64,000 nucleotides of DNA from Limnobacter alexandrii (GTDB taxonomy: Bacteria > Pseudomonadota > Gammaproteobacteria > Burkholderiales > Burkholderiaceae_B): the NCBI RefSeq assembly GCF_005871185.1, contig NZ_SWKN01000012.1, forward strand, positions 1-64,000, given 5' to 3'. The position numbers were made by a program, and so were the translations under genes. Below, piece by piece: positions 1-41,837 of this stretch (positions are counted from its first letter, which is position 1; each line of letters begins with the position of its first letter). Under the pieces are notes generated by a model. It made no database searches, was not told where the DNA came from, and saw only the letters and a program-made list of their open reading frames with translations.

Positions 1-238
1 CGCCGTCGGCCACTTGCAGCAGTGAAATACCGTCGTTGGCGTTGCGGCCTGCTACATCGTAGCCCTTGATCTGGGCTTGCATGCGCTCGGCAATGGCCAG
101 GCCTGCGGCGTCGTCTTTGGCGCTGTTGACACGAAGGCCTGAGGACAGGCGGGCAATCGCGTTGTTCAAACCGATGCCAGAGCCTGAAAGGTTCTTCTGG
201 GCGGTCAGTGAGGCTACGTTGGTGTTGATTCCTAGCAT
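1..238 (-). CDS. fliC: Flagellin, N-terminal part (cut by window start)
   Basis: This is the first 79 codons of a flagellin gene; the rest lies beyond the window edge. The protein starts [14 protein letters not shown] and carries the conserved flagellin N-terminal helix (D0/D1) with the [19 protein letters not shown] motif. This region packs into the filament core and interacts with TLR5-like receptors in other species. The visible residues equal those of the flagellin at 1731-2594, and the DNA differs by only two substitutions over 303 bp including the leader. It is the third flagellin gene of a tandem minus-strand set. A sigma-28-type promoter lies about 70 bp upstream. The start is the ATG used by all three copies. 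Confidence 0.95.
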
Positions 239-307
239 GATATTTCTCCAAGCAAATTTAGTTGATTCAAGCTGGCTGCGTCATCGTGTGCGCTGCCTTA
301 TGATTCA

Positions 308-334
308 TTAACGCTTGGAAAAACAAGAACTTTA
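308..334 (-). promoter_or_regulatory. Sigma-28-type promoter for the partial flagellin
   Basis: On the minus strand TAAAGTTC is followed by 11 bases and AGCGTTAA. This fits the FliA consensus TAAAGTTT-N11-GCCGATAA at 7 of 8 and 5 of 8 positions. It sits about 70 bp upstream of the flagellin start, outside the block shared with the flagellin at 1731-2594. Confidence 0.65.
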
Positions 335-429
335 GAAAAAAATGCAAAAAAATCCGCTTTTGCAAGAGAATTTTATTCAACCCTAAAGTTTTGAATTGTG
401 TGGCCGTAATTCGCGCCTTCTCGAAACTT

Positions 430-477
430 CCCCTGATTATCCAGTGCGTATTGCACGATGCACTTTCAAATCAGGGG
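430..477 (-). other. Interrupted hairpin downstream of flagellin gene
   Basis: CCCCTGATT (430-438) pairs with AATCAGGGG (469-477). After a 4-base internal loop on each side, AGTGC (443-447) pairs with GCACT (460-464). The element begins 21 bp past the stop codon of the flagellin at 499-1365. No T run follows on the minus strand, so it is a processing or stabilising structure, or a weak terminator, rather than a clear Rho-independent terminator. Confidence 0.5.
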
Positions 478-498
478 TCGCTCGGAGTAAATCCTTAC

Positions 499-1365
499 TT
501 AACGCAGCAGGCTCAACACGTTGTTGGGCAGCTGGTTGGCCTGGGCCAACATGGCAGTACCGGCCTGTTGCAGAATCTGTGAACGGGTCAGGTTCGCAGT
601 TTCCTTGGCAAAGTCAGCATCCATGATTCGGCCACGGGCAGAGCTCAGGTTGCTGCTGGTGGTTTCCAGTGAGGAAACAACTTGTTCCAGACGGCTCAAG
701 CCAGCACCCACTGTGGCGCGCAAGTTGGTGATGTCGTCAATCGCGGTGTCGATGGTCGTGATTGCAGTTTCTGCGTTGGCGGCAGTGTCTACGCCACCGA
801 AGGCGGTCACGATCAATGCTTGAGTTGCGCCACCCAGGGTGGTTTGCAGGTCGTTACCGGCAGCCAAACCATCGTCTGTCAGGTTGACGGCCAATGTGTC
901 GGATGCAGCGTTGCCCGAACCAATTTGCAGTTCCACGGATTTCTGCGCAGCAGAGAATACGTTGTTGTCGTTGAAGGTGGTACCTGTTGCAACACGGCCC
1001 ACTTCATTGGCCAGTTCCGTGAATTCACGGTTCAGGTTCAAGCGGTCGGTGTCGTTCAAGGTGCCGTTTTTGGCCTGAACGCCCAATTCACGCATACGCT
1101 GCAAGTTGTCGGTAATTTTGCCCAGTGCGCCGTCGGCCACTTGCAACAGTGAAATACCGTCGTTGGCGTTGCGAGCTGCGACATCGAAGCCGCGGATTTG
1201 TGCGGTCATGCGTTCTGCAATGGCCAGGCCGGCAGCGTCGTCTTTGGAGCTGTTAACACGCAAGCCAGAAGACAGGCGAGCGATTGAAGTTTCAAGGGAG
1301 CTGGCAGATCTGCTCAGATTGTTTTGTGCACCCAATGAAGGTGCGTTGGTATTAATTCCTAGCAT
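499..1365 (-). CDS. fliC: Flagellin
   Basis: Structural subunit of the flagellar filament, exported through the flagellar type III apparatus and polymerised at the tip. The 288-residue protein has the conserved N-terminal (MLGINTNAPSLGAQNNLSRS) and C-terminal (AKETANLTRSQILQQAGTAM) coiled-coil regions that form the D0/D1 core. The middle is short, so the variable outer D2/D3 domains are nearly absent. It differs clearly from the other two flagellins of this cluster in both the N-terminal and central parts and ends in LLR rather than LLQ. It has its own sigma-28-type promoter with a leader of about 80 bp. It is probably a minor or alternative filament subunit, but the sequence alone cannot say which copy dominates. 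Confidence 0.95.
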   Translation of the reverse strand: MLGINTNAPSLGAQNNLSRSASSLETSIARLSSGLRVNSSKDDAAGLAIAERMTAQIRGFDVAARNANDGISLLQVADGALGKITDNLQRMRELGVQAKNGTLNDTDRLNLNREFTELANEVGRVATGTTFNDNNVFSAAQKSVELQIGSGNAASDTLAVNLTDDGLAAGNDLQTTLGGATQALIVTAFGGVDTAANAETAITTIDTAIDDITNLRATVGAGLSRLEQVVSSLETTSSNLSSARGRIMDADFAKETANLTRSQILQQAGTAMLAQANQLPNNVLSLLR

Positions 1366-1451
1366 GGTAATTACTCCGAAAAGATTTAGACAAATTAATC
1401 AGAAGTGATTTTCTTCTGTATCGTCTCGGTAAATCGTTCACCGATGACTAT

Positions 1452-1478
1452 ATATCGACTGATGATTTTTAATATTTA
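1452..1478 (-). promoter_or_regulatory. Sigma-28-type promoter for the middle flagellin
   Basis: On the minus strand TAAATATT is followed by 11 bases and GTCGATAT. Each half matches the FliA consensus at 6 of 8 positions with exact spacing. It lies 87 bp upstream of the flagellin start at 1365. It is weaker by sequence than the promoter at 2664-2690. Confidence 0.55.
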
Positions 1479-1525
1479 GGATATTTTTAAATATTTTTTT
1501 AAATTGTTCCTATTTAAGAAAAACA

Positions 1526-1574
1526 AAAACAGATTATCTTTTTCCTGATTTTCAAGAAAAAGATAATCTGTTTT
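1526..1574 (-). terminator. AT-rich perfect hairpin between flagellin genes
   Basis: A perfect 19 bp inverted repeat (arms 1526-1544 and 1556-1574, loop 11 nt) is followed on the minus strand by a T-rich run. It lies downstream of the GC-rich terminator at 1593-1626 and may act as a second, back-up terminator for the flagellin at 1731-2594. It could also be a binding site. Confidence 0.5.
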
Positions 1575-1592
1575 AAAAACAAAAAGACGCAA

Positions 1593-1626
1593 GAAAAAAG
1601 GAGGGGTGGGTGGAACCCACCCCCTC
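1593..1626 (-). terminator. Rho-independent terminator of flagellin 1731-2594
   Basis: Read on the minus strand, a GC-rich stem (GAGGGGGTGGGT paired with ACCCACCCCTC, one bulge, 3 nt loop) is followed by CCTTTTTTCTT. It starts about 105 nt past the flagellin stop codon and fits a classic intrinsic terminator. Confidence 0.8.
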
Positions 1627-1730
1627 TAAAACAACCGGCTATCAGGAATCAGATCAGCAGGCTGCTGCTTGGTCTACACAAGTACTACAACACGGCTACT
1701 ACATTGAAATTGTTTCCTTTCTCATTCGGA

Positions 1731-2594
1731 TTACTGCAACAGGCTCAGAACGTTGTTGGGCAACTGGTTGGCCTGGGCCAGCATGGCGGTGCCAGCCTGC
1801 TGCAAAATCTGTGAGCGGGTCAGTGCTGCCGTTTCCTTGGCGAAGTCTGCGTCCATGATTCGCCCACGGGCGGCCTGCAGGTTGGTGCTGGAGATGTCGG
1901 CAAAGGCAGCGACCTGTTCCAGTCGGCTTTGGCCCGCCCCCACCACCGCACGAATACCGGTGATGGCGTCAATCGACGCGTCCAGCGTGGTGATTGCGGT
2001 CGTGGCGTTGGCCACATCCAGAATGTCACCCAGGTTGGTTTGAATGTCGGCTGCACCGTTGGTCATGATGGTGGTCAGGTCATTGCCCGTGCTCAAGCCA
2101 TCGTCGGTCAGGTTTAATTCCAGGGTGTCGGAAACCGCGTTGCCGGTGCCCACCTGGAAGCTTAATGTTTGGTTGGCGGCATCAAACAGGTTGTTGCCGT
2201 TGAAGGTGCTGCCGCTCACAATCCGGTCCACTTCGTTGGCCAGTTCCGTGTACTCACGGTTCAGGTTTACACGGTCGGTGGGGTTCAGTGTGCCGTTTTT
2301 GGCCTGAACAGCCAACTCACGCATACGTTGCAGGTTGTCGCTGATCTTGCCCATGGCGCCGTCGGCCACTTGCAGCAGTGAAATACCGTCGTTGGCGTTG
2401 CGGCCTGCTACATCGTAGCCCTTGATCTGGGCTTGCATGCGCTCGGCAATGGCCAGGCCTGCGGCGTCGTCTTTGGCGCTGTTCACACGAAGGCCTGAGG
2501 ACAGGCGGGCAATCGCGTTGTTCAAACCGATGCCAGAGCCTGAAAGGTTCTTCTGGGCGGTCAGTGAGGCTACGTTGGTGTTGATTCCTAGCAT
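1731..2594 (-). CDS. fliC: Flagellin
   Basis: Filament subunit of 287 residues with canonical N-terminal ([20 protein letters not shown]) and C-terminal (NVLSLLQ end) D0/D1 helices and a short centre. It has the best sigma-28 promoter of the three flagellin genes and a strong intrinsic terminator, so it is a good candidate for the main filament protein. Its first 79 codons and leader are almost identical to those of the partial copy at 1-238. This indicates recent duplication or gene conversion. All three flagellin genes are monocistronic and point the same way. They lie next to the divergently placed flhDC operon. Confidence 0.96.
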   Translation of the reverse strand: MLGINTNVASLTAQKNLSGSGIGLNNAIARLSSGLRVNSAKDDAAGLAIAERMQAQIKGYDVAGRNANDGISLLQVADGAMGKISDNLQRMRELAVQAKNGTLNPTDRVNLNREYTELANEVDRIVSGSTFNGNNLFDAANQTLSFQVGTGNAVSDTLELNLTDDGLSTGNDLTTIMTNGAADIQTNLGDILDVANATTAITTLDASIDAITGIRAVVGAGQSRLEQVAAFADISSTNLQAARGRIMDADFAKETAALTRSQILQQAGTAMLAQANQLPNNVLSLLQ

Positions 2595-2659
2595 GATATT
2601 TCTCCAAGCAAATTTAGTTGATTCAAGCTGGCTGCGTCATCGTGTGCGCCGCCTTATGA
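2357..2659 (-). repeat. 303 bp direct repeat shared by two flagellin genes
   Basis: Positions 2357-2659 match positions 1-303 with only two substitutions (128/2484 and 294/2650). The first is a silent GTC/GTG change. The match covers the first 79 codons plus about 65 bp of leader and stops just before the sigma-28 -10 element. The repeat may extend beyond the window edge. Confidence 0.9.
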
Positions 2660-13814: not shown

Positions 13815-13845
13815 TCATCACCGCTGCGTGGGTTGCTTGCGCTGA

Positions 13846-14440
13846 ATGTCACTGGTGACTCTTGATCTGAACTTGAAGGGTCACCGCTGCGGTTTCCTGC
13901 TGGTTTCTTGCCAACTCGGCATGGGTTACTTGTGCCGCACTGAAAACCGCTTGATCCCTTTTTGACTTTATTCTTGCTCACCTCGCTCGGCAAAAGGGCG
14001 GGCCGAGTCTCGGTGTCGGCTTAACGCCGAACGCTGCGACTAAACTCAAACGGGGCGGTTTTCTTGAAGTGCGTCCCAAGCAATCCCACTGCCGAGTTGG
14101 CTTAAACCTCTCGTGCGCAGACATTTGCAAGTTCAGCTCTGCGTCACCGCAGGGTTCAACGCCCAATCGGCGGCGGTGTTTCGATCGCCTCGCCTTCAAG
14201 AAAACCTGCCCTTGCGTGCCGAGCAGGGCCGGTGTCGCCCGGCATGGGCGACAGAGAACGAGCCCGACCCGCTTTTTAGGAGGGTCGTTCTCAGGCATCG
14301 TGAGGCTCAGCAAGGGAGTTACAGGTTTTCAGGCGAGAGATCGGAACCCAAGCCGATCGGGCAGTTAACCGGCAGGCGAGAGATTGAAACCCAAGCCGAT
14401 TGGGCAGTTAACCGGCAGGCGAGAGATCGGAACCCAATCC
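13846..14440 (+). repeat. Modular intergenic repeat, copy 1 (modules swapped and inverted)
   Basis: Fills most of the 700 bp between flhB and flhA and holds no credible gene. A head (GGTGACTCTTGATCTGAAC to GGTCACCGCTGC) precedes hairpin module 1 (13942-14063). That module is bounded by perfect arms GAAAACCGC and GCGGTTTTC. A core follows, whose 14126-14199 part closely matches the other copies. Hairpin module 2 (14200-14330) is bounded by GAAAACCTG and CAGGTTTTC. Module 1 is the reverse complement of the second module of copies 2 and 3. Module 2 resembles, less closely, the reverse complement of their first module. A tandem-repeat tail ends the element. Confidence 0.85.
14331..14437 (+). repeat. 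43 bp tandem repeat tail of copy 1
   Basis: Two full units and one partial unit of 43 bp. Each contains CCCAAGCCGATYGGGCAGTT followed by AACCGGCAGGCGAGAGAT. The unit holds the palindrome CCGATCGG. The same tail is found at the end of the other two copies. Confidence 0.85.
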
Positions 14441-14485: not shown

Positions 14486-14512
14486 TAAAGTTTTCCATAA
14501 TTGAACCGTTAA
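14486..14512 (+). promoter_or_regulatory. Sigma-28-like promoter next to the flhA start
   Basis: An exact TAAAGTTT, 11 bases, and ACCGTTAA fit the FliA consensus (8 of 8 and 6 of 8). The -10 element ends 7 bp before the flhA ATG. Transcription would therefore start at or next to the start codon and give an almost leaderless message. Confidence 0.6.
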
Positions 14513-33213: not shown

Positions 33214-33777
33214 ACTTGAAGGGTAACCGCTGCTGTTTCCTGCTGGTTTCTTGCCCACTCGGCATGGGTGACTCGTGCCGCATGTAACCGGTGACTCTTG
33301 ATCTGAACTTGAAGGGTCACCGCTGCCCGAAAACTTGGCATTTCGGCCTGTCTGCTTGAGTCTGCACTAAGCCAAGCCCTCCAAAAGTAACGGTCGGGTC
33401 TTGGCTTTCGCGCATGGGCGCGATCGTTAGTCTCTGCGCGCCAAGCCGGCAAGTTTTCTGACTGGTCATCGTGCGACCACTTGCAAGTTCAGCTCTGCAT
33501 CACCGCTGGGTTCAACGCCCAATTGGCGGCGGTGTTTCGATCGCCTCGCCTTCAAGAAAACCTGCCCGTTTGAATTCACCCGCTACGGTCGGCCAAAGGC
33601 CGGCACCGAGACTCGGCCCGCCCTTTTGCCGAGCGAGGTGAGTCAGGGTGAATCTCAAAAAGGGAAAACCAGGTTTTCAGGCGAGAGATTGAAACCCAAG
33701 CCGATCGGGCAGTTAACGAGCGGTCGAGTGAGCAGCAACCCAAGCCGATCGGGCAGTTAACGAGCGGTCGAGCAAGC
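33214..33777 (+). repeat. Modular intergenic repeat, copy 2
   Basis: This element fills the whole gap between flgL and the convergent response-regulator gene and holds no credible gene. A head of two related units carries TGAACTTGAAGGGTMACCGC. Module A follows (33329-33458, arms GAAAACTTGGC and GGCAAGTTTTC, 10 of 11 paired). Next are a core (33459-33555), module B (33556-33678, perfect arms GAAAACCTG and CAGGTTTTC) and a tandem tail. Module A holds inner hairpins AAGCCAAG/CTTGGCTT (33369-33407) and TCGCGC-ATGG-GCGCGA (33408-33423). Module B holds CGGCC-AAA-GGCCG and CCGAG-A-CTCGG. Confidence 0.88.
33679..33777 (+). repeat. 44 bp tandem repeat tail of copy 2
   Basis: Two units with a 44 bp period, each holding CCCAAGCCGATCGGGCAGTT and then AACGAGCGGTCGAG. 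The last unit runs up to the stop codon of the regulator at 33778-34407. Confidence 0.85.
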
Positions 33778-34407
33778 TTAAATCAGCCCGTTCTCCAAGG
33801 CATAGCGCGTCAGTTCACCATTGGTTTTCATGCGCATTTTCTCAAGAATCCGTGCCCGATAAACGCTCACAGTCTTGGGGCTAAGTGACAATTCATCCGC
33901 AATTTCACTTAACTTTTTGCCCGCAGCAATCATCCTGATGGTTTGAAATTCACGGTCACTCAGCGTGGCATGCAGGGGCTTCTCAGAGTCCTCAGTCAAG
34001 TGGCTGGCCAGTGATTCTGCAAGCTCGGGGGTAATGTACTTGCGGCCCGCAGCAATTACCTGGATCGCATCCACCAGTTTTTCAGGGGCGGTGTTCTTGG
34101 TCAAATACCCAGAGGCTCCAGCCTTCAGGCAACGCACAGCGTACTGGTCTTCCGGGTGCATCGACAGCATCAGGATTTTCAGGGCAGGGTATTTGTCTTT
34201 CAAAATTTTAACAATGTCCACACCGTTTTTTCCTGGCATGGAAATATCCAGAATGGCCAAGTCAACCTCATGCGCGTTCATGGCCTTCATGATTTCTGAA
34301 TACTCGCCCGCTTGGGCCGCCACCTGAACAAATCCTGTGTCATCCAGCAACTGCTTCAGGCTTCCCCGAAGCAATGCATGGTCATCTGCCAGCAGCACCT
34401 TAATCAT
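33778..34407 (-). CDS. NarL/FixJ-type response regulator
   Basis: A 209-residue DNA-binding response regulator. The receiver domain has its phospho-Asp at residue 54 (LAILDISMPGKNG). The C-terminal LuxR-type helix-turn-helix lies at about 145-205 (TLSDREFQTIRMIAAGKKLS, KTVSVYRARILEKM). The ATG at 34407 follows GAGG and overlaps the end of the kinase gene upstream by 8 bp, so the two are co-translated partners. The location between flgL and cheR suggests a link to motility, but the target genes cannot be read from the sequence. Confidence 0.92.
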   Translation of the reverse strand: MIKVLLADDHALLRGSLKQLLDDTGFVQVAAQAGEYSEIMKAMNAHEVDLAILDISMPGKNGVDIVKILKDKYPALKILMLSMHPEDQYAVRCLKAGASGYLTKNTAPEKLVDAIQVIAAGRKYITPELAESLASHLTEDSEKPLHATLSDREFQTIRMIAAGKKLSEIADELSLSPKTVSVYRARILEKMRMKTNGELTRYALENGLI

Positions 34408-35938
34408 TTCCCGCCTCACCTGTCTGAATGCTTCTTGGTATGGACACCATGACCGTTGTCCCGGACCCAAGGGATCCGCTGACATCGACCCAGCCCTCGA
34501 AGGCTGCAACCCGTTCTTGCATGCCTCGTAGGCCGAACGATGTTTCTTTTAATTTATCAGTATTCTCGATTCCGCGACCATTGTCACGAATCTCCAATGT
34601 TAATTCACTTTCTGTAACAAACAACTCCGCGTCAACCCGCGTTGCTTGCGCGTGTTTCACAATGTTGGTCAGGGCTTCCTGCAGTATTCGGAACAACGCG
34701 GTGCTTTGTTCGCTGTCCAGGTCCAGTTCGTCCACATTGCACTGGAATGTGCCTTCAATCTGAGTGCGTTTCTGAAAATCGTTCATCTGCCATTCAAGGG
34801 CAGGAATCAAGCCATAATCCAGAATACCTGGTCGCAGGTCTTTGGCAATCCGCTGGCTGCTCGCAAGCAAGTGCTCTATCAATTCAAGCATGTCATCGAG
34901 CTTTTCCTGAACTGCTGACTCAGACGGCACGTTCTTGTTCAGCCAGGCCACATCGGCTTTCAGCTTGGTCAGCGAGCCGCCCATGTCATCATGAATTTCA
35001 CGGGCAATTGCACCGCGTTCCTGCTCACGGCGTTTCTCAAACTCGGTGGTCACCAGGCGCAACTCGGTTTGTGCGCTCAGCAGGCGTTCTTCAGCCTGTT
35101 TTCGATCCGAAATGTCCAGCAATACGCCGTCCCACACAAACATGTTTCCACGTAGTTTGGCCACTGCATTCATGTACACCCAGCGGGATTCCTTTTTGCC
35201 GTAATTTTTGATCCGGCCCTCCCAGCTCACAGCCACGCCGGGTTTCGGAGGGTCCATCAATTGCTCGAAAAGAACCGCTGCATCAGCAGGTTCAAACTGC
35301 TCGAAAAAGTAATGTGGATTTTCCAGAAACAGGCGGGTGGGCACACCGAAAAGCCTGACTACCCCTTCGCTAACAAAAGGCACTGTGGGGCGCGGCATCG
35401 ACGGGCCCGACTGCATCTGAAAAATAATGCCCGGAATATTCTCTGCAATTGCAGCAAATCGCCGCTCAGATTCCCGCTGAGCCTGTTCCGCTGCCGCAAG
35501 GCTGCGGCGTTCATTGGCTGCCCTCAGCGAACGCTCTATGGCGGGCACCAGGCGCGCCATTTTGTCCTTCATGAGGTAATCGTCGGCACCGGCCCGCATG
35601 GCATCGACGGCCACATGTTCGCCAATGCTGCCAGACACAATAATGAAGGGAATATCCAGCCCCGAATCGCGCACCACGCGCAAGGCTTCCTCAGACCCGA
35701 AGCCTGGCAAATTGTGGTCAGAAATAACCACTTGCCACTCCTCGTGTTCAAGGCACTTTCGCAGGTCCTCCAGGCGGTCCACCCGCGTGGCCGTGTACTT
35801 CAGTCCGCCCTGTTTCAGGCGGTAGCACATCAACTCAAAGTCCGAATCATTGTCTTCCACCACCAGAACTTTCAATCCACCATCTGAAAAGTTACTGATG
35901 TCCAACAATGAAGGGGGCAGTCCTTTTGTATTACTCAT
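34400..35938 (-). CDS. Hybrid histidine kinase with N-terminal receiver and PAS domain
   Basis: A 512-residue soluble kinase with an unusual order. An N-terminal receiver (about 20-145, Asp74 in VVISDHNLPGFG) is followed by a PAS domain (about 165-285, FAAIAENIPGIIFQM). A coiled coil and a HisKA_3 domain come next (GAIAREIHDDMGGSL, with the phospho-His). The C-terminal HATPase shows EALTNIVKHA and GRGIENTD. No membrane helices are visible. The HisKA_3 class normally pairs with NarL-type regulators, and the next gene is one. The N-terminal receiver implies that another kinase or Hpt feeds into it. Confidence 0.92.
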   Translation of the reverse strand: MSNTKGLPPSLLDISNFSDGGLKVLVVEDNDSDFELMCYRLKQGGLKYTATRVDRLEDLRKCLEHEEWQVVISDHNLPGFGSEEALRVVRDSGLDIPFIIVSGSIGEHVAVDAMRAGADDYLMKDKMARLVPAIERSLRAANERRSLAAAEQAQRESERRFAAIAENIPGIIFQMQSGPSMPRPTVPFVSEGVVRLFGVPTRLFLENPHYFFEQFEPADAAVLFEQLMDPPKPGVAVSWEGRIKNYGKKESRWVYMNAVAKLRGNMFVWDGVLLDISDRKQAEERLLSAQTELRLVTTEFEKRREQERGAIAREIHDDMGGSLTKLKADVAWLNKNVPSESAVQEKLDDMLELIEHLLASSQRIAKDLRPGILDYGLIPALEWQMNDFQKRTQIEGTFQCNVDELDLDSEQSTALFRILQEALTNIVKHAQATRVDAELFVTESELTLEIRDNGRGIENTDKLKETSFGLRGMQERVAAFEGWVDVSGSLGSGTTVMVSIPRSIQTGEAGND

Positions 35939-41240: not shown

Positions 41241-41816
41241 GTGATCTGAACTAGCAGGGTCACCGCTGTAGTTTCTGCCAACTCGGCACGGGTTACTTGT
41301 GTCGCATGTTACTGGTGACTCTTGATCTGAACTTGAAGGGTCACCGCTGCCCGAAAACTTGGCATATCGGCTTGTCAGCTTGAGTCTGCACTAAGCCAAG
41401 CCCTCCAAAAGTAACGGTCGGGTCTTGGCTTTCGCGCCATGGCGCGATCGTTAGTCTCAGCGCACCAAGCCGGCAAGTTTTCTGACTGGTCATCGTGCGA
41501 CCACTTGCAAGTTCAGCTCTAAGTCACCGCTCGGTTCAGCGTCCAATCGGCGGCGGTGTTTCGATCGCTTCGCCTTCAAGAAAACCTGCCCGTTTGAATT
41601 CACCCGCCACGGTCGGCCAAAGGCCGGCACCGAGACTCGGCCCGCCTTTTTGCCGAGCGAGGTGAGTCAGGGTGAATCTCAAAAAGGGAAATACAGGTTT
41701 TCAGGCGAGAGATTGGAACCCAAGCCGATCGGGCAGTTAACCGGCAGGCGAGAGATCGGAATCCAAGCCGATCGGGCGGTTAACAAGCGGCCGAGCGAGC
41801 AACAGCCCAAGCCGAT
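41241..41816 (+). repeat. Modular intergenic repeat, copy 3
   Basis: Fills the gap between greB and the convergent spoT gene and holds no credible gene. Layout as in copy 2: a head with two TGATCTGAACT units, module A (41353-41482, 130 bp), core (41483-41579), module B (41580-41702, 123 bp) and tandem tail. Module lengths equal those of copy 2 exactly. The inner loop of module A changed from TCGCGC-ATGG-GCGCGA to TCGCGC-CATG-GCGCGA, keeping the stem. Confidence 0.88.
41703..41816 (+). repeat. 43-44 bp tandem repeat tail of copy 3
   Basis: Three units beginning at about 41719, 41762 and 41806, each with CCAAGCCGATCGGGC or a variant; the first two continue into GTTAAC, while the third is truncated. 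Linkers are CGGCAGGCGAGAGATCGGAA and a GAGCGAGC type, so it mixes the two linker types seen in copies 1 and 2. Confidence 0.82.
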
Positions 41817-41837
41817 TAGGCTATTCAAACCAGAAGG

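What the first reader, a model, noticed from the sequence alone, without database searches (positions are those of the whole stretch)
33214..33777. Undescribed-looking 580 bp modular intergenic element in three copies
Three gaps (13846-14440, 33214-33777, 41241-41816) hold the same non-coding element: head, hairpin module A, core, hairpin module B, tandem tail. Modules are bounded by inverted repeats of the GAAAAC/GTTTTC type and contain inner hairpins. A and B have exactly 130 and 123 bp in copies 2 and 3. No transposase or reading frame is shared. It does not look like REP, ERIC or a known terminator. It could be a structured RNA, a non-autonomous mobile element, or a site for a DNA-bending protein.
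Basis: seen in the sequence. Interest (0 to 1): 0.78.

Follow-up and report, generated by a model that had tools for sequence, protein, structure and literature searches.

The report
Paired hairpin repeats between gene ends
The bacterium Limnobacter carries about thirty copies of a modular DNA repeat, most built of two long hairpins of opposite polarity and placed where neighbouring genes end, which probably works as a shared mRNA end signal and whose orientation, strangely, tends to follow the direction of DNA replication.

Summary
The three copies are real and belong to a repeat family with 32 recognisable copies (some single hairpins) in this Limnobacter genome. DNA search finds it in 11 of 15 other genomes of the genus and 0 of 44 outside; a covariance model hits 1 of 43 genera.

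A full copy holds two long hairpins: slot 1 (type A or A1) and slot 2 (type B or B1), inside nested arms. Copies lie at gene 3' ends: 20 of 32 between convergent genes, none between divergent ones. Substitution patterns indicate that slot 2 folds on the + strand and slot 1 on the - strand (p=1e-6). Orthologous gaps often keep the element but swap hairpin types (slot 1: 47 of 105 pairs; slot 2: 96 of 219). Element orientation follows replication in 23 of 24 copies of one complete genome and 30 of 41 of a more distant one.

Best reading: a bidirectional mRNA 3'-end element (terminator or 3' protector), spread as a modular repeat and homogenised by recombination. No Y1 transposase (0 of 8 genomes), no Rfam match. 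Function is untested; the replication rule is unexplained and most surprising.

The parts
13826..14440 (+). Copy 1 (A1/B1 type) between an FlhB-family and an FHIPEP (FlhA-family) gene, tandem
13826..13940 (+). Copy 1 head: alpha arm unit (GTGACTC..GGGTCACC hairpin) then beta left arm (GCCAACTCGGCATGGGTTACTTG)
   Evidence: arms named by eye
13941..14073 (-). Copy 1 slot 1 hairpin, type A1 (relative of B on the other strand, about 79% identical); apical loop has a T run on the - strand
14074..14199 (+). Copy 1 core: beta right arm, alpha right arm, gamma left arm
   Evidence: arms named by eye
14200..14330 (+). Copy 1 slot 2 hairpin, type B1; apical loop with a T run on the + strand
14330..14440 (+). 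Copy 1 tail: tandem copies of the gamma right arm (about 43 bp unit)
33214..33777 (+). Copy 2 (A/B type), stop to stop between a Flagellin_N-domain gene and a LuxR-type response regulator gene (convergent)
33214..33325 (+). Copy 2 head
33326..33461 (-). Copy 2 slot 1 hairpin, type A
33462..33555 (+). Copy 2 core: alpha right arm and gamma left arm
   Evidence: arms named by eye
33556..33682 (+). Copy 2 slot 2 hairpin, type B
33683..33777 (+). Copy 2 tail: two gamma right-arm units
41242..41821 (+). Copy 3 (A/B type) between a GreA/GreB-family and a RelA/SpoT-family gene (convergent)
41242..41349 (+). Copy 3 head
41350..41485 (-). Copy 3 slot 1 hairpin, type A
41486..41579 (+). Copy 3 core
41580..41706 (+). 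Copy 3 slot 2 hairpin, type B
41707..41821 (+). Copy 3 tail: tandem gamma right-arm units

Best explanation
A Limnobacter-wide family of modular intergenic repeats that works as a two-way mRNA 3'-end element. It lies after stop codons, mostly between convergent genes. A full copy carries two long hairpins of opposite polarity: slot 2 would be read as RNA by the gene reading in the + direction, slot 1 by the gene reading in the - direction. Each hairpin is closed by GAAAAC..GTTTTC, a stem framed by a short A tract and T tract, the layout of a two-way intrinsic terminator with a very large structured loop; it would end transcripts or protect their 3' ends from exonucleases. Hairpins are exchangeable cassettes (A/A1, B/B1), kept alike by recombination between copies, while many sites are shared between species. 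Shown from sequence: placement, pairing and its strand polarity, swapping, replication-linked orientation. Inferred: transcription of the gaps, termination or 3' protection, and the recombination that swaps cassettes.
For: 32 copies in this genome: 20 convergent, 7 and 5 tandem, 0 divergent, against 18.7% convergent and 29.4% divergent intergenic length in a background sample (P 6e-8 and 1e-5). 10 of 15 two-hairpin copies in convergent gaps have both ends within 30 bp of a called stop codon (copy 2 counted after correcting a missed gene), and in 9 of 12 tandem gaps the copy lies nearer the stop codon than the start codon. WC-to-GT against WC-to-AC changes: B 48/22, B1 28/6, A 6/13, A1 16/29; slot 2 against slot 1 p=1e-6. 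Covariation: 14 of 30 pairs, 0 of 500 shuffles. Apical T run on the + strand in B (89 of 90 rows with TTTT; B1 17 of 49, the rest mostly TTT) and on the - strand in A and A1 (37 of 38, 47 of 47). In two complete genomes 38 of 38 two-hairpin copies have the - strand hairpin left and the + strand hairpin right, whatever the element's orientation (strand inferred from family). Single hairpins in tandem gene contexts have that strand equal to the gene reading in for 3 of 3 (G008) and 4 of 5 (G010). Sites shared by species with swapped hairpins.
Against: For each transcript the hairpin of its own polarity is the distal one, odd for a simple terminator. Copy 1 lies between flhB and flhA, often one operon (recalled). 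Unpaired positions of B1 also show strand asymmetry, so part of its G-T excess may be mutational. Single hairpins of unclear or divergent context in G010 agree in 2 of 3 and 0 of 1. One covariation measure (further pair types) did not exceed shuffles (389 of 500). The replication-linked orientation is not explained by a pure mRNA-end role. Some relatives have empty or small gaps at the same sites. No RNA data.
Confidence: 0.5

Rival explanations
1. A non-autonomous mobile element that inserts at replication forks (single-stranded DNA on the lagging-strand template, or clamp-guided insertion); gene 3' ends are merely where insertions are tolerated.
For: Orientation equals fork direction in 23 of 24 copies (G008) and 30 of 41 (G010), 10 of 11 core-bearing copies on contig C3 of G012 (by eye) and 13 of 15 on contig C1 of the window's genome (by eye). 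In G008 it holds for 10 of 11 copies in tandem contexts of either gene direction. IS200/IS605 and Tn7 show such orientation (passages of PMC5371812). Repeats thought to be parasitic also prefer convergent gaps (PMC3049150 section 6).
Against: No Y1 transposase in 8 of 8 genomes searched; no readable target duplication (by eye); many sites are shared by several species, so insertion is rare; opposite folding polarity of the two slots is not expected of one transposing strand. Other transposase families were not searched. At some gaps distant species hold the element in the opposite orientation (33 pairs).
Confidence: 0.27
2. Structured trans-acting or protein-sequestering RNA (for example binding Hfq or ProQ through the U-rich loop).
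For: A T run in the apical loop recurs in all four hairpin types; strand-specific pairing.
Against: No match in Rfam; no promoter sought within the element beyond a consensus scan that listed none inside copies 2 and 3; placement follows gene ends.
Confidence: 0.1
3. Neutral quasi-palindromes: hairpins are kept paired by template switching during replication and by gene conversion, without function.
For: Concerted evolution: A, B and B1 hairpins at orthologous sites are no more alike than those within a genome. Template switching at quasi-palindromes is described in yeast (start of the abstract of PMC3820800 in the listing).
Against: Such correction should not give opposite G-T/A-C polarity in two slots that are 94-126 bp apart in the window copies, nor full avoidance of divergent gaps.
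Confidence: 0.08
4. Binding site for a chromosome-organising protein or gyrase (BIME-like), placed where convergent transcription piles up supercoils.
For: Convergent placement; a REP paper links such gaps with supercoiling (passage of PMC1525189).
Against: Not tested: no protein motif was sought. Conservation lies in pairing, with alternative interiors.
Confidence: 0.05

Closest known systems
Pneumococcal BOX, RUP and SPRITE repeats (PMC3049150; abstract and section 6 read)
   Same: Interspersed intergenic repeats with extensive secondary structure, BOX modular; over-represented between convergent genes; about half of the sites shared by all strains; SPRITE resemble terminators and lie close to gene 3' ends.
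   Different: Sequences were not compared. They lie on the leading strand in 60.8-63.3% of cases, mirroring coding bias; here 23 of 24 in G008 (30 of 41 in G010), while 114 of 203 sampled G008 genes are leading. Two hairpins of opposite polarity are not described in the parts read.
Neisserial intergenic mosaic elements (NIME: dRS3 plus RS units; passages of PMC3898611)
   Same: Mosaic intergenic arrays of short inverted repeats with units of different sequence.
   Different: dRS3 is ATTCCC(N8)GGGAAT with nearly 700 copies; here borders are GAAAAC/GTTTTC within long hairpins, about 30 copies, two slots with two common alternatives each.
REP/BIME with TnpA-REP (RAYT) transposase (passages of PMC8266576 and PMC1525189)
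   Same: Intergenic palindromes, often between convergent genes; BIMEs pair two inverse hairpins; roles in gene expression proposed.
   Different: REPs are short hairpins with a GTAG tetranucleotide and a Y1 transposase; here hairpins are 127-136 bp in longer nested arms, and no Y1 transposase was found in 8 genomes.
Bidirectional intrinsic terminators of convergent genes (recalled; listings only)
   Same: A tract, stem, T tract on both strands; 3'-end placement.
   Different: Stem closed over about 110 nt of structured loop, only four T, usually two per gap, dispersed as a repeat family.

Membership tests
REP/BIME | Genome encodes a Y1 (PF01797) RAYT transposase | tested here: not met
   0 of 8 Limnobacter genomes (seven with the element, one without); the control rings in 5 of 14 known genomes
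REP/BIME | Short hairpin (tens of nt) preceded by GTAG | tested here: not met
   Hairpins are 127-136 bp; GTAG occurs 0, 1 and 1 times in copies 1, 2 and 3, both strands counted
REP/BIME | Intergenic, at gene 3' ends | tested here: met
   20 of 32 convergent, 12 tandem, 0 divergent
MITE / non-autonomous transposon | Terminal inverted repeats with target-site duplication at an empty/filled pair | tested here: inconclusive
   Empty gaps exist but differ too much to read a duplication (by eye); outer ends vary between copies
MITE / non-autonomous transposon | Partner transposase with matching ends | not tested
   Only Y1 and reverse transcriptase (3 of 8 genomes) were sought
Known structured RNA (Rfam 15) | Match at gathering score | tested here: not met
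   0 in the whole window; for copies 1 and 2 only matches with E of 1.2 or more, far under gathering scores
Intrinsic terminator | Compact GC stem-loop (loop 3-8) followed by at least 5 T in 8 | tested here: not met
Hairpins end in TTTTC
Intrinsic terminator | Ends transcripts in vivo | not testable with these tools
   No RNA data
NIME | dRS3 repeat ATTCCC(N8)GGGAAT bordering units | tested here: not met
   Module borders in the alignments are GAAAAC/GTTTTC; dRS3 pattern from PMC3898611; no genome-wide dRS3 scan was made
BOX (pneumococcal) | boxA-boxB-boxC sequences | not tested
   Sequences were not compared
Integron attC site | Recombination site flanking gene cassettes | not tested
   The three window copies stand singly in gaps between flagellar, regulatory, greA/B- and relA/spoT-family genes

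The most novel reading that the evidence does not exclude
Limnobacter chromosomes use two classes of transcript-end hairpins sorted by replication strand: B/B1 hairpins end leading-strand (co-directional) transcripts and A/A1 hairpins end lagging-strand (head-on) transcripts, combined as exchangeable cassettes in one bidirectional element. In G008, 21 of 22 B-class and 17 of 18 A-class hairpins obey this; in the more distant G010 only 28 of 39 and 16 of 24 do (the two hairpins of one copy are not independent).
Probability: 0.18. Interest if true: 0.85.

Novelty: new variant of a known kind. Interest (0 to 1): 0.6.

Why it matters
If right, one dispersed repeat punctuates both transcripts of convergent genes, its hairpins are traded like cassettes, and the hairpin class used is tied to replication direction. 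One could then ask directly whether head-on and co-directional genes need different transcript ends, or whether a repeat can spread by a replication-coupled route without the transposase known for such spread. Even if it is only a parasite, the orientation bias of G008 (23 of 24) is far stronger than that reported for BOX, RUP and SPRITE (60.8-63.3%), though it is weaker in G010 (30 of 41).

Tried and rejected
Rejected: plasmid or phage origin (no match in plasmids and phages with copy 2; no exact match of one 38-base pattern in viral contigs). RAYT/REP system. Spread that needs a resident reverse transcriptase: RVT_1 in 3 of 8 genomes and not found in G008, G010, G006 and G001, which carry copies. 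Rfam families. Chance pairing.

Led nowhere: consensus terminator scan (copies 2 and 3 not flagged; 25 found in that part of the window against 26.8 expected). Reading target duplications from empty sites by eye. The weak BLAST piece at G000:C1:1289039 (L030) gave no module at E 1e-3 and is not among the 32.

Caveats on my counts. The gene caller is a simple codon-usage script; it missed the gene 33778-34509, so its distance of 622 for copy 2 should be 0. The background sample holds one G008 copy (at 1787737). Loci came from queries of this family, including an exact-end pattern that favours B/B1 copies with intact ends. The strand of each hairpin is inferred from its family, not read from its loop, and in convergent gaps agreement with a gene is automatic. 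Orientation counts for contig C1 of G000 (single hairpins left out) and contig C3 of G012 were read by eye. Of 232 orthologous pairs, 105 could be typed in slot 1 and 219 in slot 2; some diverged A1 hairpins of sp. 130 were typed as reversed B and dropped from slot 1. Orthologous copies are not independent, so P values for orientation are too small. The match list was cut. My note gives 12 of 15 and 0 of 45; the listing gives 11 of 15 and 0 of 44.

Full report
1. Observation. Copies at 13826-14440, 33214-33777 and 41242-41821 were confirmed by direct reading, repeat search and module BLAST. Copies 2 and 3 are 92% identical; copy 1 shares head units, core end and tail but has other hairpins in both slots. 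Copy 2 folds far better than 100 shuffles.

2. Host and distribution. In the window's genome 58 BLAST pieces group into 32 copies with recognisable modules, the three of the window included. DNA search: 11 of 15 other genus genomes (one, G004, with a single weak piece; two of the four without are 65-85% complete) and 0 of 44 others. A covariance model of the B-family hairpin hits 6 of 151 genomes of the family, all in 1 of 43 genera (6 of 7 listed genus members, the own genome included; G014 none); only 22 candidates per genome were scored, with strict filters. Some B1 hairpins of G008 score 41-48 bits with this model, so B and B1 look like distant relatives (positions compared).

3. Anatomy. 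Slot 1 holds type A (136 bp) or A1 (133 bp), slot 2 B (127) or B1 (131). A1 is about 79% identical to the other strand of B. Hairpins are closed by GAAAAC/GTTTTC and sit in longer arms with their own inverted partners: alpha (around A), beta (around A1), gamma (around B/B1); copy 1 reads alpha beta [A1] beta' alpha' gamma [B1] gamma' gamma' gamma' (by eye). The apical loop has a T run on the + strand in slot 2 (TTTT in 89 of 90 B rows and 17 of 49 B1 rows, the other B1 rows mostly TTT) and an A run there, so T run on the - strand, in slot 1 (AAAA in 37 of 38 A and 47 of 47 A1 rows). Single hairpins occur (for example L025, L026, L029, L036). Typed combinations among 31 unique copies of this genome: A/B 8, A1/B 8, A/B1 4, A1/B1 3, and 8 with one slot typed.

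4. Folding strand. In pairs shared by the consensus folds of both strands, parsimony counts of Watson-Crick to G-T against Watson-Crick to A-C changes were B 48/22, B1 28/6, A 6/13, A1 16/29 (90, 49, 38, 47 rows). Slot 2 against slot 1: odds ratio 5.2, p=1e-6; slot 2 alone p=3e-6, slot 1 alone p=0.017. Each Watson-Crick pair offers one transition of each kind, so composition cannot cause this; a mutational strand bias could, but it would have to be opposite in the two slots. Divided by base counts, changes in unpaired columns show no consistent asymmetry in B, A and A1, but do in B1. Covariation in 24 B-family hairpins: 97.1% of cells paired, 14 of 30 pairs with changes on both sides, 0 of 500 shuffles; 'further pair types' did not exceed shuffles (389 of 500).

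5. Gene context. 20 of 32 copies lie between convergent genes, 12 between tandem genes, none between divergent genes. Background (the window without its three element gaps plus 20 samples of 12 kb of G008, one of which holds a copy): 18.7% of intergenic length convergent, 29.4% divergent. In G008 13 of 24 clusters are convergent and 11 tandem; in G010 27 convergent, 10 tandem, 1 divergent, 4 unclear of 42. Window copies lie between FlhB- and FlhA-family genes, between a Flagellin_N gene and a LuxR-type response regulator, and between GreA/GreB- and RelA/SpoT-family genes.

6. Same sites, swapped hairpins. At the three window sites G005, G006, G008 and G012, and G013 at site 2, hold a complete element beside an upstream gene 85-96% identical; 13 of 13 differ from the window copy in at least one slot. 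G013 contigs end inside the element at sites 1 and 3. G001 has a remnant or nothing at all three sites; G007 nothing at site 3, a full element at site 2 and a degenerate one at site 1; G003 a mini-hairpin at site 3; G009 and G010 diverged hairpins; G014 hairpins with a B1-like stretch (81%) at sites 1 and 2. Over 168 unique copies from 13 genomes there were 232 orthologous pairs in the same orientation; slot 1 type the same in 58 and swapped in 47, slot 2 the same in 123 and swapped in 96. A further 33 pairs had the element in opposite orientation. By the labels there one pair has two hairpins on both sides, 8 compare single B hairpins, and most others set a close-clade copy against a distant species; but one search shows that the G010 copy at site 1 (1158177) has two hairpins, so true opposite orientation at a shared gap occurs. 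Same-type hairpins at orthologous sites are 92-95% identical against 88-96% within a genome, while flanks average 86%. The nearest relative lies in the same genome alone for 13 of 23 A, 8 of 18 A1, 20 of 47 B and 7 of 34 B1, and at the orthologous site alone for 2, 7, 6 and 4; A1 is the exception, with orthologues (92%) closer than copies within a genome (88%). This is largely concerted evolution.

7. Replication. dnaA lies at 1.1 kb in G008 and 1.2 kb in G010. GC skew is positive in 9 of 10 samples up to 1.61 Mb of G008 and negative in 8 of 10 beyond 1.70 Mb; the terminus of G010, taken as 1.8 Mb, is weakly placed. The element points with the fork in 23 of 24 copies of G008 (p=3e-6) and 30 of 41 of G010 (p=0.004). 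On contig C3 of G012, where skew flips near 0.87 Mb, 10 of 11 core-bearing copies agree (by eye). On contig C1 of the window's genome, dnaA at 555 kb, 13 of 15 agree (by eye). The window's three sites correspond to 1.026-1.054 Mb of G008 on the + strand, where + is fork direction. Of 203 sampled G008 genes 114 are leading, so gene bias does not explain it. In G008 10 of 11 copies in tandem contexts, of both gene directions, agree. In two-hairpin copies the strand order is - then + in 17 of 17 and 21 of 21 whatever the orientation (strand inferred from family), so polarity follows converging transcripts and the hairpin class follows replication.

8. Explanation. This fits a two-way 3'-end element: one hairpin for each converging transcript, cassettes traded by recombination. 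The mini-hairpin of G003 at site 3, GAAAACCGCC..GGGCGGTTTTC, is close to a plain two-way terminator. Termination or protection is not decided. The orientation rule may come from replication-coupled spread or from different needs of leading and lagging genes; I cannot separate these.

9. Known kinds. It works like SPRITE- or REP-type 3'-end repeats and looks like a mosaic of the NIME/BOX kind, but fails the membership features tested for REP, NIME, Rfam families and canonical terminators. Paper searches with Limnobacter plus repeat and intergenic (4 papers) and plus genome and palindromic (2 papers) listed nothing whose title or abstract start concerns such elements; searches on palindromic repeats and replication direction (21, 0 and 22 papers; listings only apart from PMC1525189 and PMC3049150) showed no match in kind. 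The library lacks most subscription papers.

Noticed in passing
window 14486-14512: TAAAGTTT-N11-ACCGTTAA upstream of the flhA-family gene resembles a sigma-28 flagellar promoter (consensus recalled); it would let flhA be transcribed despite an element between flhB and flhA.
   Followed up: no
window 1-2656: Two flagellin genes (499-1365 and 1731-2594, both - strand) in tandem, with 300-bp repeated blocks up to 99% identical.
   Followed up: partly
L168 (980-1520) and L202 (1060-1510), genome G014: A genus member without a BLAST or model hit to the element has its own hairpins at two of the same gaps, sharing a B1-like apex (81% over 48 and 59 bp).
   Followed up: partly
L050 (1232-1380), L186 (2115-2250): Slot 1 hairpins with A1 ends but another interior (A-like in L050), as if interiors were swapped inside conserved ends.
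   Followed up: partly
G012 contig C3 near 0.87 Mb: Skew flips only about 0.86 Mb from dnaA, suggesting unequal replichores, an inversion or an assembly join.
   Followed up: no
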